This document shows, one piece after another, positions 1 through 4,893 of a stretch of 51,513 nt of DNA; the first letter of the stretch is position 1, and each line of letters begins with the position of its first letter. Source of the DNA: Rhizobium sp. Q54. GTDB lineage: Bacteria; Pseudomonadota; Alphaproteobacteria; UBA828. The notes under the pieces are model-generated. The model worked only from the letters and a program-made list of their open reading frames with translations. It made no database searches and was not told where the DNA came from. Position numbers and translations under genes: made by a program. The DNA is taken from NCBI GenBank assembly GCA_945892755.1, contig CAMDDO010000011.1:1-51513 (forward strand), read 5' to 3'.

Positions 1-331
1 GAAGGGGAGAAGGCTATCGTCATGCATGGCGGGTGTGGCGCTCCATGATCGCGGCATTGACCCTGTCTCGACAACAGAATCATGCTCGCTATCAGCGGCT
101 TACGCCACATCCGCCAGCCCAAAATCGTCGCCGTCATGCATAAGACGGGTTAGAACGCTAAAAGAGAATCGCGCTCGCATCGTGTTTTATGATCAACTCC
201 TTCAGGACGCTGAAAAGACTTACAGCGACTATCTGGAGAAACGCGGCATCGTTGATACCCTGGGCCAAGTCATTGCAGCAATCGACGACTACTCCCGCCC
301 GTCTTCCGCCGTCGAAAAAGCACCGGCCTGA
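1..331 (+). pseudogene. C-terminal remnant of an unrecognised, possibly nuclease-like protein
   Basis: The frame is open from the left edge of the window to a TGA at 329-331. Only the last ~60 codons (from about 150) look like real protein: a basic helix, the segment RARIVFYDQLL, then a charged helix and a short Pro/Ser tail. The earlier part of this frame is Ser/Cys-rich and does not look coding, while another frame reads plausibly at about 61-149, so a frameshift or rearrangement near 110-150 is likely. The motif with 'hydrophobic, Y-D-x-L-L' resembles the end of Shedu/DUF4263-type nuclease domains; this is a recollection of family shape, not a search result. It lies just upstream of a vsr gene, in the same direction, which fits a defence or restriction-modification patch. 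It could instead be an intact gene with its start outside the window. Confidence 0.35.
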
Positions 332-368
332 TTTTCTTGCGGTGCAGGTTCGGTCTCGCTCACAGCAA

Positions 369-818
369 ATGACAAAGAATGACCGGAGCCTTAGTTCGCA
401 GGACGATCCCCCGCCCTCCGCTGCACGGTCTGCTCTCATGGCGCGGGTTCACAGTCGCGATACGAGACCCGAGAAAATTGTAAGGAAGGCCGTGCATGGC
501 CTTGGGTTTAGGTATCGGCTACATCGAAAGGATCTCCCGGGCACACCCGATCTGACGTTTCCCCGTCTGAGAAGGGTTATCTTTGTTCATGGATGTTTTT
601 GGCATCGGCACCAGAATTGCCCGAAGGCAACAACCCCTCGTACGAGGTACGATTTCTGGCAGGGAAAATTTGACGCCAACACCAAGCGAGACCGCCGGGC
701 CATCCGTGCACTCAAAGCGCATGGCTGGAAGCCCTTGGTCGTTTGGGAGTGCGAAACCTCTGCTTCCAAAACCACAAAGCTTCGGCTCAAATTGCAACGT
801 TTCTTGGCCGAAGGTTAG
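369..818 (+). CDS. vsr: Very short patch repair (Vsr) endonuclease
   Basis: Vsr nicks DNA 5' of the T in T:G mismatches that arise when 5-methylcytosine deaminates, and is normally paired with a cytosine-5 methyltransferase. The 149-residue product has the family signature: RPEK (E35), LPGTPD with the catalytic Asp D61, HGCFWHRH (H74, H79, H81) for metal and active-site roles, C84 and the C of WEC (C128) as structural zinc ligands. The frame stays open upstream to 189, but those residues are not Vsr-like, so the ATG at 369 was chosen; it gives the usual family length. No methyltransferase lies in the window; it may be to the left. Base composition is less GC-rich than in the next genes, which suggests transfer together with the broken ORF before it. 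Confidence 0.9.
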   Translation: MTKNDRSLSSQDDPPPSAARSALMARVHSRDTRPEKIVRKAVHGLGFRYRLHRKDLPGTPDLTFPRLRRVIFVHGCFWHRHQNCPKATTPRTRYDFWQGKFDANTKRDRRAIRALKAHGWKPLVVWECETSASKTTKLRLKLQRFLAEG

Positions 819-2435: not shown

Positions 2436-2549
2436 CGCGCGCGGGACGGGGGCCGTCCCTGCCCCTGCCCGGCCGGAGCGGCGGATGCTAGGATCGGTTG
2501 CAGCCGGCCGGCCCAGCACAACGCTCCCCGGCCCGGCCCGGAGGCGGCG

Positions 2550-3335
2550 ATGAGATCGCGCCTGGCGACGCTCGGGTTTGGTCTGGTCCTTCTCGCAGCG
2601 GCCTTGGGCCCGGCGCGGCCCGCGCTTGCCGGCGACCTCTTGCCCCCGCCCGAGATCTATCAAGTGCTCTGCCTCGCAGAGCTCGACGTGATCGAGGTGC
2701 GCCGGCTCGATGTCGCGCCCGAGACCGCGCGCGAGGTGGTCGCACGGCATGACGAGGCGCTCGCCGCCGCGAACAACCTCTATGTGCCCGATTGGCACGC
2801 GCATCTCGACCGCGCTCCGAACGAGCCCGGCTACGGCATCGCGCCGACGATCTTCAAATGCAAGTTCAGCGTCGGCCCGGCCGAGCTGGTGCTGCTGCCC
2901 GAGCCGATCGAAGAACATGCCAACAGCATCGCGGTGACGCTCAAGCTCAAGAACAAGGTCATCGTCGACGACGTGCCGTTTCGCCTCTGCGCACATGGCG
3001 GGCCGATCACCCGGCTCATCTATCACGCCGCCGAGGAGTATGTTTTTCTTGAGGGCAGCTTCAGGAGCTACCAATCCGCCTCCCCCGAGGCTCAAGCATC
3101 CCTCGCCACCTATTCTCGTCGCGCCAACATTGATCGCTTCGGCGGCATCTCGCTCCGCAACGAGGCAACAGGCGGCCATTCGATTCGGTTTGGCGGACTG
3201 CGGACGAGCGACCTTGACTATGCCGGGGTGGATTTCGCAAGGATTGCGGCCGGAGCTAGAAAATGCCGCTTCGCCGGCCCGGGCAGTCCCGACGCGCGGC
3301 TGCAATCGCCGGCTGCAAATGATGATCGCCGCTAA
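2550..3335 (+). CDS. Secreted protein of unknown function, paralogue 1
   Basis: Not a family I recognise. The 261-residue product has a classic Sec signal peptide (MRSRLATLGF..., hydrophobic core to ~20, cleavage after ALA at about 27), so the mature protein is periplasmic or exported. Three conserved Cys positions stand out: C41 in YQVLCLAELD, one in FKCKF and one in FRLCAHGG. The pattern YQxxCLxxLDxxEvR, the xxWH segment, FxCxxxxGPxE and the motif around RLxY recur in the next gene, so the two are tandem paralogues. The start has GGAGG 5 nt upstream. It is divergent from rpsD and only 29 bp before paralogue 2, so the two probably form an operon. The last ~40 residues are polar and probably disordered. 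Confidence 0.75.
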   Translation: MRSRLATLGFGLVLLAAALGPARPALAGDLLPPPEIYQVLCLAELDVIEVRRLDVAPETAREVVARHDEALAAANNLYVPDWHAHLDRAPNEPGYGIAPTIFKCKFSVGPAELVLLPEPIEEHANSIAVTLKLKNKVIVDDVPFRLCAHGGPITRLIYHAAEEYVFLEGSFRSYQSASPEAQASLATYSRRANIDRFGGISLRNEATGGHSIRFGGLRTSDLDYAGVDFARIAAGARKCRFAGPGSPDARLQSPAANDDRR

Positions 3336-3364
3336 CGCCGGTCGGCAATGGCAAGGCGGGTAGC

Positions 3365-4063
3365 GTGAAACTCTGGTTGGCCGCATCTATTCTCGTGGGC
3401 GTCGTAACGATCTTCGGTACGTCGCCTCGAACGGCGCAGGCGAGTAACCCGTACGATCTTTACCAGTTCGTCTGCCTGCCTAAGCTCGACCTTGTCGAGT
3501 TGCGCTTGATCGGATTTTTCGGTGAGATCCGGCAAGGCTCGATCGGCATTCGAAACGAACATCTCGAACAAGCCTATGGTATCTTCGGGCCGCACTGGTT
3601 GACCGATCCCAATCCCAATCCCAATCCCAAGGCGGACAGAATGGACCCCGCCAGCGAGCCGGTTCGTTTCACCTGCGCGTTGGCATCAGGGCCAGTGGAG
3701 ATCGAAGTAAAGGCGGTGCCCGATGGCCGCCACAGCCTTGCGATTGCGGTGACGGTCAGCACGTCAGACCGAAAGCTTGTCGAGGAATTATGCTTCTCCT
3801 GTTGCGCGTTCTGCGACAACGAAAACGCGATCAAGCGGTTGAGCTACGATGGTCGCTCAGGATCGCTCACGCTTTACGGAGAATTCCTGCGCGAATCGCG
3901 GAACCTGTCCGTCGCCGGCCCCATCTACGACCCCTATCGCCGTTTCTTCATCGAGAGCGACGGCATTCGCGCGGCGGACCCAGAAGCCACCGGCTGGACC
4001 CGGCAACAAAACGCCTTAACGTCGCACGACATTCCCGTCGCCGATTGGCGGACGGGGGATTGA
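3365..4063 (+). CDS. Secreted protein of unknown function, paralogue 2
   Basis: The 232-residue product starts at a GTG (3365) and carries a signal peptide with probable cleavage after AQA (about 26). It shares with paralogue 1 the mature N-terminal motif YQFVCLPKLDLVELR (C37), the FTCALASGPVE segment, a Cys-rich stretch (ELCFSCCAFC, more Cys than paralogue 1) and a LSYDGRSGSLTLYGEF block. An Asn-Pro repeat (about residues 83-88) comes from an AATCCC hexamer tandem. The paired Cys suggest disulphides and a periplasmic location. It converges on the lysozyme-like gene with only 23 bp between stop codons. GC content is lower than in the core genes around it. Function is unknown; a periplasmic inhibitor or immunity role is only a hypothesis from the neighbour. 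Confidence 0.75.
   Translation: MKLWLAASILVGVVTIFGTSPRTAQASNPYDLYQFVCLPKLDLVELRLIGFFGEIRQGSIGIRNEHLEQAYGIFGPHWLTDPNPNPNPKADRMDPASEPVRFTCALASGPVEIEVKAVPDGRHSLAIAVTVSTSDRKLVEELCFSCCAFCDNENAIKRLSYDGRSGSLTLYGEFLRESRNLSVAGPIYDPYRRFFIESDGIRAADPEATGWTRQQNALTSHDIPVADWRTGD
3605..3630 (+). repeat. Hexamer tandem repeat AATCCC inside paralogue 2
   Basis: GATCCC is followed by three perfect AATCCC units and a partial AA. The repeat unit is in frame (two codons), so slippage would change the number of Asn-Pro pairs and not break the gene. Confidence 0.85.
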
Positions 4064-4086
4064 GCCCGATTGCGCGAGCGACGAAG

Positions 4087-4800
4087 CTACCGCTTCCACC
4101 AAACATCCAAGTACGGCTGGAACCATTCCAAGAACAGAAGCTCGGTCTCCGCGTTTCGGTCGATTCCTACGTCCTCGGTTTCGCGATGGGATTCCGCGCC
4201 AGCAATATCCCAGGCTCGATCTCTCAATGCGGCGGTCAACTTCTTCCAGTTCTCCGTGAACTTGCCCTCACCCGCATTCCACGCGATATCGAACACGGCC
4301 TCCTGAACCTCGGGTGGAAGGTTAGCGAAGTTGATCCACTTCTCTTTGCGTTCCTCCGGGGGCACGTCCGGGTCTTGAAATGCCTCGATGAGGTTTTGAT
4401 ACACTTTGTCGATCTTGCGACCGAACGTATGAATTATCGTGGCTCTCGATAACTCGACCGTAGTAATCGGCAGCGATCCGTAATGCTTCGGTGTGTAGGT
4501 GCGTCCGAACGGTGCCTTACCCAAGTCGGTCCAATTTTTCTGCGCCACAGCCGATGGCGCCGATCTAGAGGTCCCATTATATACCCATGAATACTGACTG
4601 ACCTTGGACGGCCTATCGAGCCAGAAGCCGATTCCGACCGTGATATTGCCTTGGTGGTCGCGATACATGTGGGATGAATATCCCTCGGTCTTTGCCACCC
4701 TGTTTTTTAAGCGAGGCAACGGGCTTTCATGCTCGGTGAATCGCTCCGGCTCAAACTTTGGCTTTTCATATGACAGATCCTCGTCAGCCCTCCCCACCAC
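4087..4800 (-). CDS. T4-lysozyme-like (GH24-type) muramidase without signal peptide
   Basis: Probable peptidoglycan hydrolase of the phage-lysozyme superfamily. With the GTG at 4800 as residue 1, KTEGY gives E39, RDHQG gives D48 and GNITVGIGF gives T54. The spacings E-9-D and D-6-T equal those of the T4 lysozyme triad E11/D20/T26. Later blocks also fit: PPEVQEAVFDIAWNAGEGKF resembles the conserved core helix, and the region before NAETELLFLEW resembles the C-terminal Arg/Glu block. The 237 residues are longer than T4 lysozyme (164), with an inserted ~60-residue stretch after the triad. There is no signal peptide or transmembrane segment, so export would need a holin, a secretion system or lysis. 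DNA is clearly less GC-rich than in the core genes around it. No phage genes lie beside it. The start is uncertain: GTG 4800 has no Shine-Dalgarno and sits close to the predicted transcript start. Confidence 0.75.
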   Translation of the reverse strand: MVGRADEDLSYEKPKFEPERFTEHESPLPRLKNRVAKTEGYSSHMYRDHQGNITVGIGFWLDRPSKVSQYSWVYNGTSRSAPSAVAQKNWTDLGKAPFGRTYTPKHYGSLPITTVELSRATIIHTFGRKIDKVYQNLIEAFQDPDVPPEERKEKWINFANLPPEVQEAVFDIAWNAGEGKFTENWKKLTAALRDRAWDIAGAESHRETEDVGIDRNAETELLFLEWFQPYLDVWWKR

Positions 4801-4814
4801 GTAAACTCATCAAC

Positions 4815-4843
4815 ACTATAACAGGAAATATCCCGTTTGTCAA
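4815..4843 (-). promoter_or_regulatory. Near-consensus sigma-70 promoter of the lysozyme-like gene
   Basis: On the minus strand TTGACA (4843-4838) and TATAGT (4820-4815) are separated by exactly 17 nt. Predicted transcription start is near 4808, only ~8 nt before the GTG at 4800, so the mRNA would be almost leaderless. Such a strong, isolated promoter is unusual for a stray phage gene. Confidence 0.75.
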
Positions 4844-4893
4844 GCGCGTGCCGTTTGGGCGACGAAGCGGTCATGCTTCGGCCCGAATCCTGG

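What the first reader, a model, noticed from the sequence alone, without database searches (positions are those of the whole stretch)
2550..4800. Lysozyme without signal peptide facing two secreted paralogues: a possible toxin/inhibitor module
The GH24-like gene (4087-4800) has the exact E-9-D-6-T spacing of the T4 lysozyme triad, no signal peptide and its own near-consensus promoter, and there are no phage genes next to it. It converges, with 23 bp between stops, on two tandem paralogues that both have signal peptides and conserved Cys, so they would sit in the periplasm where such an enzyme would act. Known families: type VI secretion muramidases with periplasmic immunity proteins have this kind of layout, often with multiplied immunity genes. 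The link here is inference; no secretion genes are in the window, and such pairs are usually codirectional.
Basis: partly seen in the sequence, partly recalled or inferred. Interest (0 to 1): 0.55.

Follow-up and report, generated by a model that had tools for sequence, protein, structure and literature searches.

The report
Wall-cutting toxin with guard proteins
A bacterium carries several copies of a small mobile gene set that makes a cell-wall-cutting enzyme together with exported proteins that very probably protect the producer from it, a bacteriocin-like weapon whose way of reaching its victims is unknown.

Summary
In detail: a signal-less T4-type lysozyme gene (4087-4800) converges on two tandem exported paralogues. 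It is not a one-off. The genome has four such lysozymes (32-46% identical), each convergent with one or two members of the same exported family: 4 of 4 lysozymes, 6 of 6 exported genes. All four share one promoter with a palindromic operator, found nowhere else in the genome with up to 3 mismatches. The module is a 2.5-kb insertion between trmJ and rpsD. Elsewhere, lysozymes of this superfamily sit beside unrelated exported families; on small Col plasmids, unannotated relatives form colicin-type operons. A toxin-immunity module is well supported, a prophage endolysin is not. The type VI route is not supported: no TssK, TssC, VirB10, baseplate J or phage portal in the genome. Best reading: a chromosomal, multi-copy, bacteriocin-like muramidase with periplasmic immunity. 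Release and entry are unknown; no activity was tested, no complex modelled.

The parts
4087..4800 (-). toxin: T4-type (GH24-like) lysozyme, 237 aa, no signal peptide, triad E39/D48/T54; start codon uncertain
   Evidence: three further copies in the genome
4815..4843 (-). toxin promoter: -35 TTGACA (4843-4838), 17-bp spacer, -10 TATAGT (4820-4815)
   Evidence: same element upstream of all four lysozymes and nowhere else in the genome at up to 3 mismatches; reversed-pattern control 0
4824..4833 (-). imperfect palindrome GGATATTTCC in the promoter spacer, putative operator
   Evidence: kept in four otherwise diverged upstream regions. The regulator is unknown (inference)
3365..4063 (+). exported paralogue B, 232 aa, putative periplasmic immunity protein, convergent with the toxin (23 bp between stops)
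2550..3335 (+). exported paralogue A, 261 aa, putative periplasmic immunity protein, in tandem with B (28% identical, mature parts)
2440..4893 (.). approximate extent of the inserted module between the rpsD -35 region and the end of trmJ
   Evidence: trmJ and rpsD within 250 bp in 5 of 9 relatives, the same-genus G013 among them; repeats at the ends were not sought

Best explanation
It is a horizontally acquired toxin-immunity module. The toxin is a muramidase made in the cytoplasm from a regulated promoter. The two convergent genes make Sec-exported proteins that wait in the periplasm and inhibit the enzyme, protecting the producer and its kin. It works like a colicin-type bacteriocin (convergent immunity, separately regulated toxin), reduced to little more than the catalytic domain. 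Shown here: the gene pairing and its recurrence, the shared promoter, the insertion, and colicin-type relatives. Inferred: muramidase activity, inhibition, constitutive expression of the immunity genes, and how the toxin leaves the producer and enters a target, for which no known machinery was found in this genome. The confidence given is for a toxin-immunity module of this enzyme; that it is released like a bacteriocin I put at about 0.5.
For: Four lysozymes and six exported genes in the genome, all paired. One promoter/operator on all four lysozymes and no other site. Toxin genes at 50-56% G+C against 65% for the surroundings. Pair absent from the 21 other genomes of the order (one weak lysozyme hit). 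Module missing between trmJ and rpsD in relatives. Homologous pair convergent in G142 and co-directional in G294. Convergent exported partners at 7 of 15 lysozyme places outside this genome against 11 of 116 control ORFs, Fisher p 9e-4, plus co-directional exported partners in G373, G287 and G294. At least five partner families without detectable relation beside one lysozyme superfamily. Named relatives are on Col plasmids (31 records), with boxes of the LexA type, Gly-rich N-termini, a DGTGWSSE motif in two and, in one, a colicin lysis gene.
Against: No colicin-like translocation or receptor domain and no room for a lysis gene. No secretion system, contractile baseplate or phage portal found in the genome. 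The operator is not the enterobacterial LexA box. Five of 14 strong lysozyme hits elsewhere have no exported neighbour. Three genomes have a weak exported-family match without a lysozyme nearby (G276, G667, G407). Fold models are poor (pLDDT 49 and 51) and fold searches gave nothing. Activity and inhibition are untested.
Confidence: 0.75

Rival explanations
1. A self-directed lysis programme: under the shared operator the four lysozymes lyse part of the population (to release vesicles, DNA or another product), and the exported inhibitors prevent accidental lysis.
For: Four loci share one regulated promoter and no delivery system was found.
Against: No holin or spanin-like gene fits in the module, so a cytoplasmic lysozyme would not reach the wall. 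One shared inhibitor would do, yet each locus has its own diverged one or two. Relatives are bacteriocin- or effector-like in other lineages.
Confidence: 0.12
2. A type VI or type IV secretion effector with its immunity protein.
For: Related lysozymes occur in genomes with TssC (G142, G061, G373) or VirB10-like genes (G192 and others), and one beside an RHS gene.
Against: This genome has 0 matches to TssK, TssC and VirB10; the pair is convergent; no trafficking domain was found by Pfam.
Confidence: 0.06
3. A phage endolysin left over from a prophage, with unrelated exported genes beside it by chance.
For: T4 lysozyme family; some relatives lie in phage gene clusters (L025, L026, G247).
Against: 0 of 50,697 phage records match the protein at E <= 0.01; no portal gene in the genome; chance would hardly give four pairings of the same two families.
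Confidence: 0.02
4. An anti-phage suicide module: the lysozyme stays harmless in the cytoplasm until an infecting phage perforates the inner membrane, then lyses the cell early; the exported proteins guard against leakage.
For: Fits a signal-less enzyme with a periplasmic inhibitor, and one relative lies between P2-like tail genes (L026).
Against: No match in PADLOC; a host inhibitor would also blunt the response; no defence genes were noticed beside the module.
Confidence: 0.05

Closest known systems
Pesticin and pesticin/lysozyme-domain bacteriocins (pesticin with Pim; telocin TelB)
   Same: T4-lysozyme-like muramidase as a bacteriocin with a dedicated immunity protein (TelB: PMC12042878, passages; pesticin and Pim recalled).
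   Different: Pesticin has translocation/receptor parts (recalled); the window protein has about 33 residues before the lysozyme domain and scores below the Pfam Pesticin cut-off (12.3 against 25.8 bits).
Lysozyme-type Col plasmids of Enterobacteriaceae (e.g. E. coli 1303 p1303_5, E. coli M8 plasmid, Enterobacter pKAM546_6), annotated 'hypothetical protein'
   Same: Homologous lysozyme domain (window protein tblastn E down to 4e-8); signal-bearing neighbour, convergent in L116, L118, L120 and L121.
   Different: Plasmid proteins have a Gly-rich N-terminus and boxes of the LexA type; their immunity families are not detectably related to the window's; p1303_5 has a co-directional signal-bearing gene and a lysis gene.
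Colicin Z (cza/czi)
   Same: 237 aa, degrades peptidoglycan, immunity gene of opposite polarity (PMC6668396, abstract and passages).
   Different: No lysozyme similarity in the passages seen; the immunity protein is a predicted membrane protein with four segments. Its sequence was not compared here.
Type VI muramidase effectors (Tse3/Tsi3, VgrG3cp/TsiV3cp)
   Same: Cell-wall muramidase plus cognate immunity protein (PMC9927483, passages; PMC3792639, search listing only).
   Different: They need a T6SS, none found here; VgrG3cp is fused to VgrG with TsiV3cp encoded downstream.

Membership tests
T4-type lysozyme (GH24-like, PF00959) | E-9-D-6-T triad | tested here: met
   E39, D48, T54; invariant in four copies; D48 and T54 invariant and E39 nearly so in 16 relatives
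T4-type lysozyme (GH24-like, PF00959) | profile similarity to solved T4 lysozymes | tested here: met
   profile E 8.5e-13; alone 18.4 bits, below the Pfam cut-off of 22.3
T4-type lysozyme (GH24-like, PF00959) | lysozyme fold | tested here: inconclusive
   model pLDDT 48.9, no significant match
colicin-type bacteriocin | immunity gene convergent with the toxin gene | tested here: met
   4 of 4 loci in this genome; that these genes give immunity is inferred
colicin-type bacteriocin | SOS (LexA) control of the toxin gene | tested here: not met
   no CTGTN8ACAG by eye in the upstream sequence; another palindrome is conserved. The LexA site of this organism is not known to me
colicin-type bacteriocin | N-terminal translocation and receptor domains | tested here: not met
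   about 33 residues before the lysozyme domain, no Gly-rich stretch
colicin-type bacteriocin | lysis protein gene | tested here: not met
   intergenic gaps in the window are 131, 29, 23 and 93 bp
colicin-type bacteriocin | kills related cells, immunity protects | not testable with these tools
   needs an experiment
type VI secretion effector | T6SS in the genome | tested here: not met
   TssK 0 and TssC 0
type VI secretion effector | co-directional effector-immunity pair | tested here: not met
   convergent in 4 of 4 loci
phage endolysin | phage neighbourhood or nearest relatives in phages | tested here: not met
   no phage genes beside it; 0 of 50,697 phage records; no portal gene
pesticin (PF16754) | Pfam Pesticin domain over cut-off | tested here: not met
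   12.3 against 25.8 bits

The most novel reading that the evidence does not exclude
A chromosomal regulon of four minimal bacteriocins: stand-alone muramidases with almost no translocation or receptor part, each with its own diverged periplasmic immunity, turned on together by an unknown regulator in a genome without any recognised injection or phage-derived machinery. They would be released and taken up by an undescribed route, and would be one case of a wider superfamily in which a single lysozyme domain is combined with many unrelated immunity families and carried by colicin plasmids, phages, type VI genomes or no known carrier.
Probability: 0.35. Interest if true: 0.75.

Novelty: new variant of a known kind. 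Interest (0 to 1): 0.58.

Why it matters
Wall-cutting bacteriocins with lysozyme domains are known from Yersinia and Klebsiella elements (pesticin recalled; TelB in PMC12042878). If it works as read, it gives new periplasmic lysozyme inhibitors, a missing regulator to find, and a test case for how a toxin without a recognisable import domain enters cells. It also suggests that many 'hypothetical proteins' on small Col plasmids are lysozyme bacteriocins.

Tried and rejected
Type VI, type IV, contractile-baseplate and phage-portal routes were sought in the genome and not found. Prophage endolysin: no phage-record match. PHROGs, NCBIfam and PADLOC gave no family for the exported proteins. Fold models had too low confidence, and the fold searches gave only noise; I draw nothing from them. 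No complex could be modelled with the tools. Co-divergence of toxin and immunity within the genome could not be resolved: both trees are largely unresolved. Colicin Z was a lead from memory (237 aa, immunity gene of opposite polarity); on reading passages it differs in activity region and immunity type, and I did not obtain its sequence. Literature searches phrased for lysozyme colicins listed no paper that I recognised as being about these plasmids; this is no proof that they are unpublished.

The association statistic is post hoc. The 15 places outside the genome were tallied by me: 14 places with E up to 1.3e-9, plus G294; two further strong places were left out (G071 runs off the contig, G153's second lies in a frame of 24,210 residues). 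The signal-peptide rule is home-made; it also marked some plainly cytoplasmic proteins, and control ORFs include spurious ones. The weaker hits were examined but not counted. The four loci of the own genome are paralogous, so 4 of 4 is not four independent events.

Full report
What is there. The three ORFs are as described: lysozyme 4087-4800 (-), exported paralogues 2550-3335 and 3365-4063 (+), 23 bp between the convergent stops. The lysozyme keeps E39, D48 and T54; alone it is a weak Pfam match, as a profile with 15 relatives it finds T4 lysozyme at 8.5e-13. The exported proteins match no Pfam, PHROGs, NCBIfam, PADLOC or PDB entry convincingly.

It recurs in the same genome. A search of the window's own genome gives four lysozymes and six exported genes. 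At every locus the lysozyme converges on one or two exported genes: the window contig (two), C2 (two), C8 and C26. So 4 of 4 lysozymes and 6 of 6 exported genes are paired. The lysozymes are 32-46% identical to each other and closer to each other than to any other relative compared (105-159 against at most 88 bits). The lysozyme genes have 50-56% G+C against about 65% around them. Each lies 63-98 bp downstream of a co-directional gene (trmJ, a petC-like gene, an ilvD-like gene, a polysaccharide-deacetylase-like gene; the last three named from memory of their sequences).

It is an insertion. Of 11 relatives searched with trmJ, nine have it. In five of these nine, the same-genus G013 among them, rpsD lies within 250 bp of trmJ; in two it is 0.9-1.0 kb away; in two it is not in the stretch fetched. 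In the window the gap is 2.5 kb and holds the module. The 21 other genomes of the order have no exported homologue and one weak lysozyme hit.

Shared control. Upstream of all four lysozymes stands TTGA-N2-A-N3-GGATAWWTCC-N-RTTAT, a sigma-70-type promoter with a 17-bp spacer that holds an imperfect palindrome. The pattern was made from these four; what is informative is that no other site in the 3.27-Mb genome matches it with up to 3 mismatches, and the reversed-pattern control has none. This suggests a common regulator, which I could not identify.

Elsewhere. In 385 genomes of the class, 4 have the exported family, the own genome included, and 32 the lysozyme, the own genome included. Both occur together in G142 (convergent) and G294 (co-directional). 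G276 has a weak exported match without a lysozyme. In 398 genomes of the phylum two more weak exported matches appear, in G667 and G407, without a lysozyme nearby (for G407 only a 3.6-kb contig exists). Other lysozymes of the superfamily stand beside other exported or lipoprotein families: P2 (G247 twice, G373, G245, Pseudoalteromonas THAF3), P3 (G192 twice, G363, G287, G153), and single ones (L026, G186). Convergent exported partners occur at 7 of 15 places outside the own genome against 11 of 116 control ORFs; co-directional exported partners in G373, G287 and G294 come on top; five of the 15 have none (G061, G397, G371, whose lysozyme itself has a signal peptide, G104, G052).

Named relatives. 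tblastn of the window lysozyme finds no phage record (0 of 50,697 at E <= 0.01) but 31 of 72,556 plasmid records (E <= 1e-3), mostly small plasmids of Klebsiella and Escherichia, annotated 'hypothetical protein'. Seven regions were read. Four (L116, L118, L120, L121) have a convergent gene whose product begins with a signal peptide by eye; L119 has a co-directional one followed by an annotated colicin release lysis protein; L122 a co-directional one in a neighbourhood with an RHS gene; in L117 a co-directional signal-bearing product related to that of L119 follows across the record start. The enterobacterial lysozymes have Gly-rich N-termini, two (L116, L120) with DGTGWSSE, which I recall as resembling a TolB-binding box; boxes of the LexA type lie upstream (exact CTGTN8ACAG in L117 and L121, near matches by eye in L116, L118, L119 and L120). 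Homologues of the L119 lysozyme are in 75 plasmid records. Immunity families P4 and P5 of these plasmids show no relation to P1-P3.

Reading. A single lysozyme superfamily joined to at least five exported families without detectable relation is the pattern of toxins with cognate immunity. An immunity gene of opposite polarity is typical of colicins acting on the membrane and of colicin M (PMC6668396, passages). The window module therefore most likely works like such a bacteriocin, but is not filed as a colicin: translocation domain, lysis gene and LexA box were tested and not met. Type VI delivery is not supported in this genome, nor type IV, contractile or phage-portal; the assembly is in 117 contigs, so absence is not final.

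Limits. Nothing here shows activity or inhibition. Structure models were poor. Association figures are post hoc and the control is rough.

Noticed in passing
L116-L121 (plasmids of E. coli, Klebsiella, Enterobacter, Salmonella): Unannotated lysozyme genes in colicin-type operons, mostly on small Col plasmids, with signal-bearing neighbours; 75 plasmid records hold a homologue of the p1303_5 protein.
   Followed up: partly
G153:C2:583998-584507 (L060): A lysozyme domain in an open frame of 24,210 residues, as reported by the search.
   Followed up: no
L063, L064 (G192): Several proteins share an N-terminal stretch beginning MSNLIQYIIQEDPE or similar, perhaps a common sorting signal for different toxins; lipoprotein genes face the lysozymes.
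   Followed up: no
L096, L058 (G247): Lysozyme with convergent exported genes inserted inside what looks like a siphophage or gene-transfer-agent tail gene cluster.
   Followed up: partly
L026 (IMG/VR contig): Lysozyme with a convergent exported gene between P2-like tail-fibre and tail-sheath genes (gene names recalled from sequence).
   Followed up: partly
L012:571-2139: Two tandem exported genes 54% identical, a more recent duplication than the 25%-identical pair in the window.
   Followed up: no
window 189-818: A vsr-type mismatch endonuclease gene near the contig end; no methyltransferase partner was looked for.
   Followed up: no
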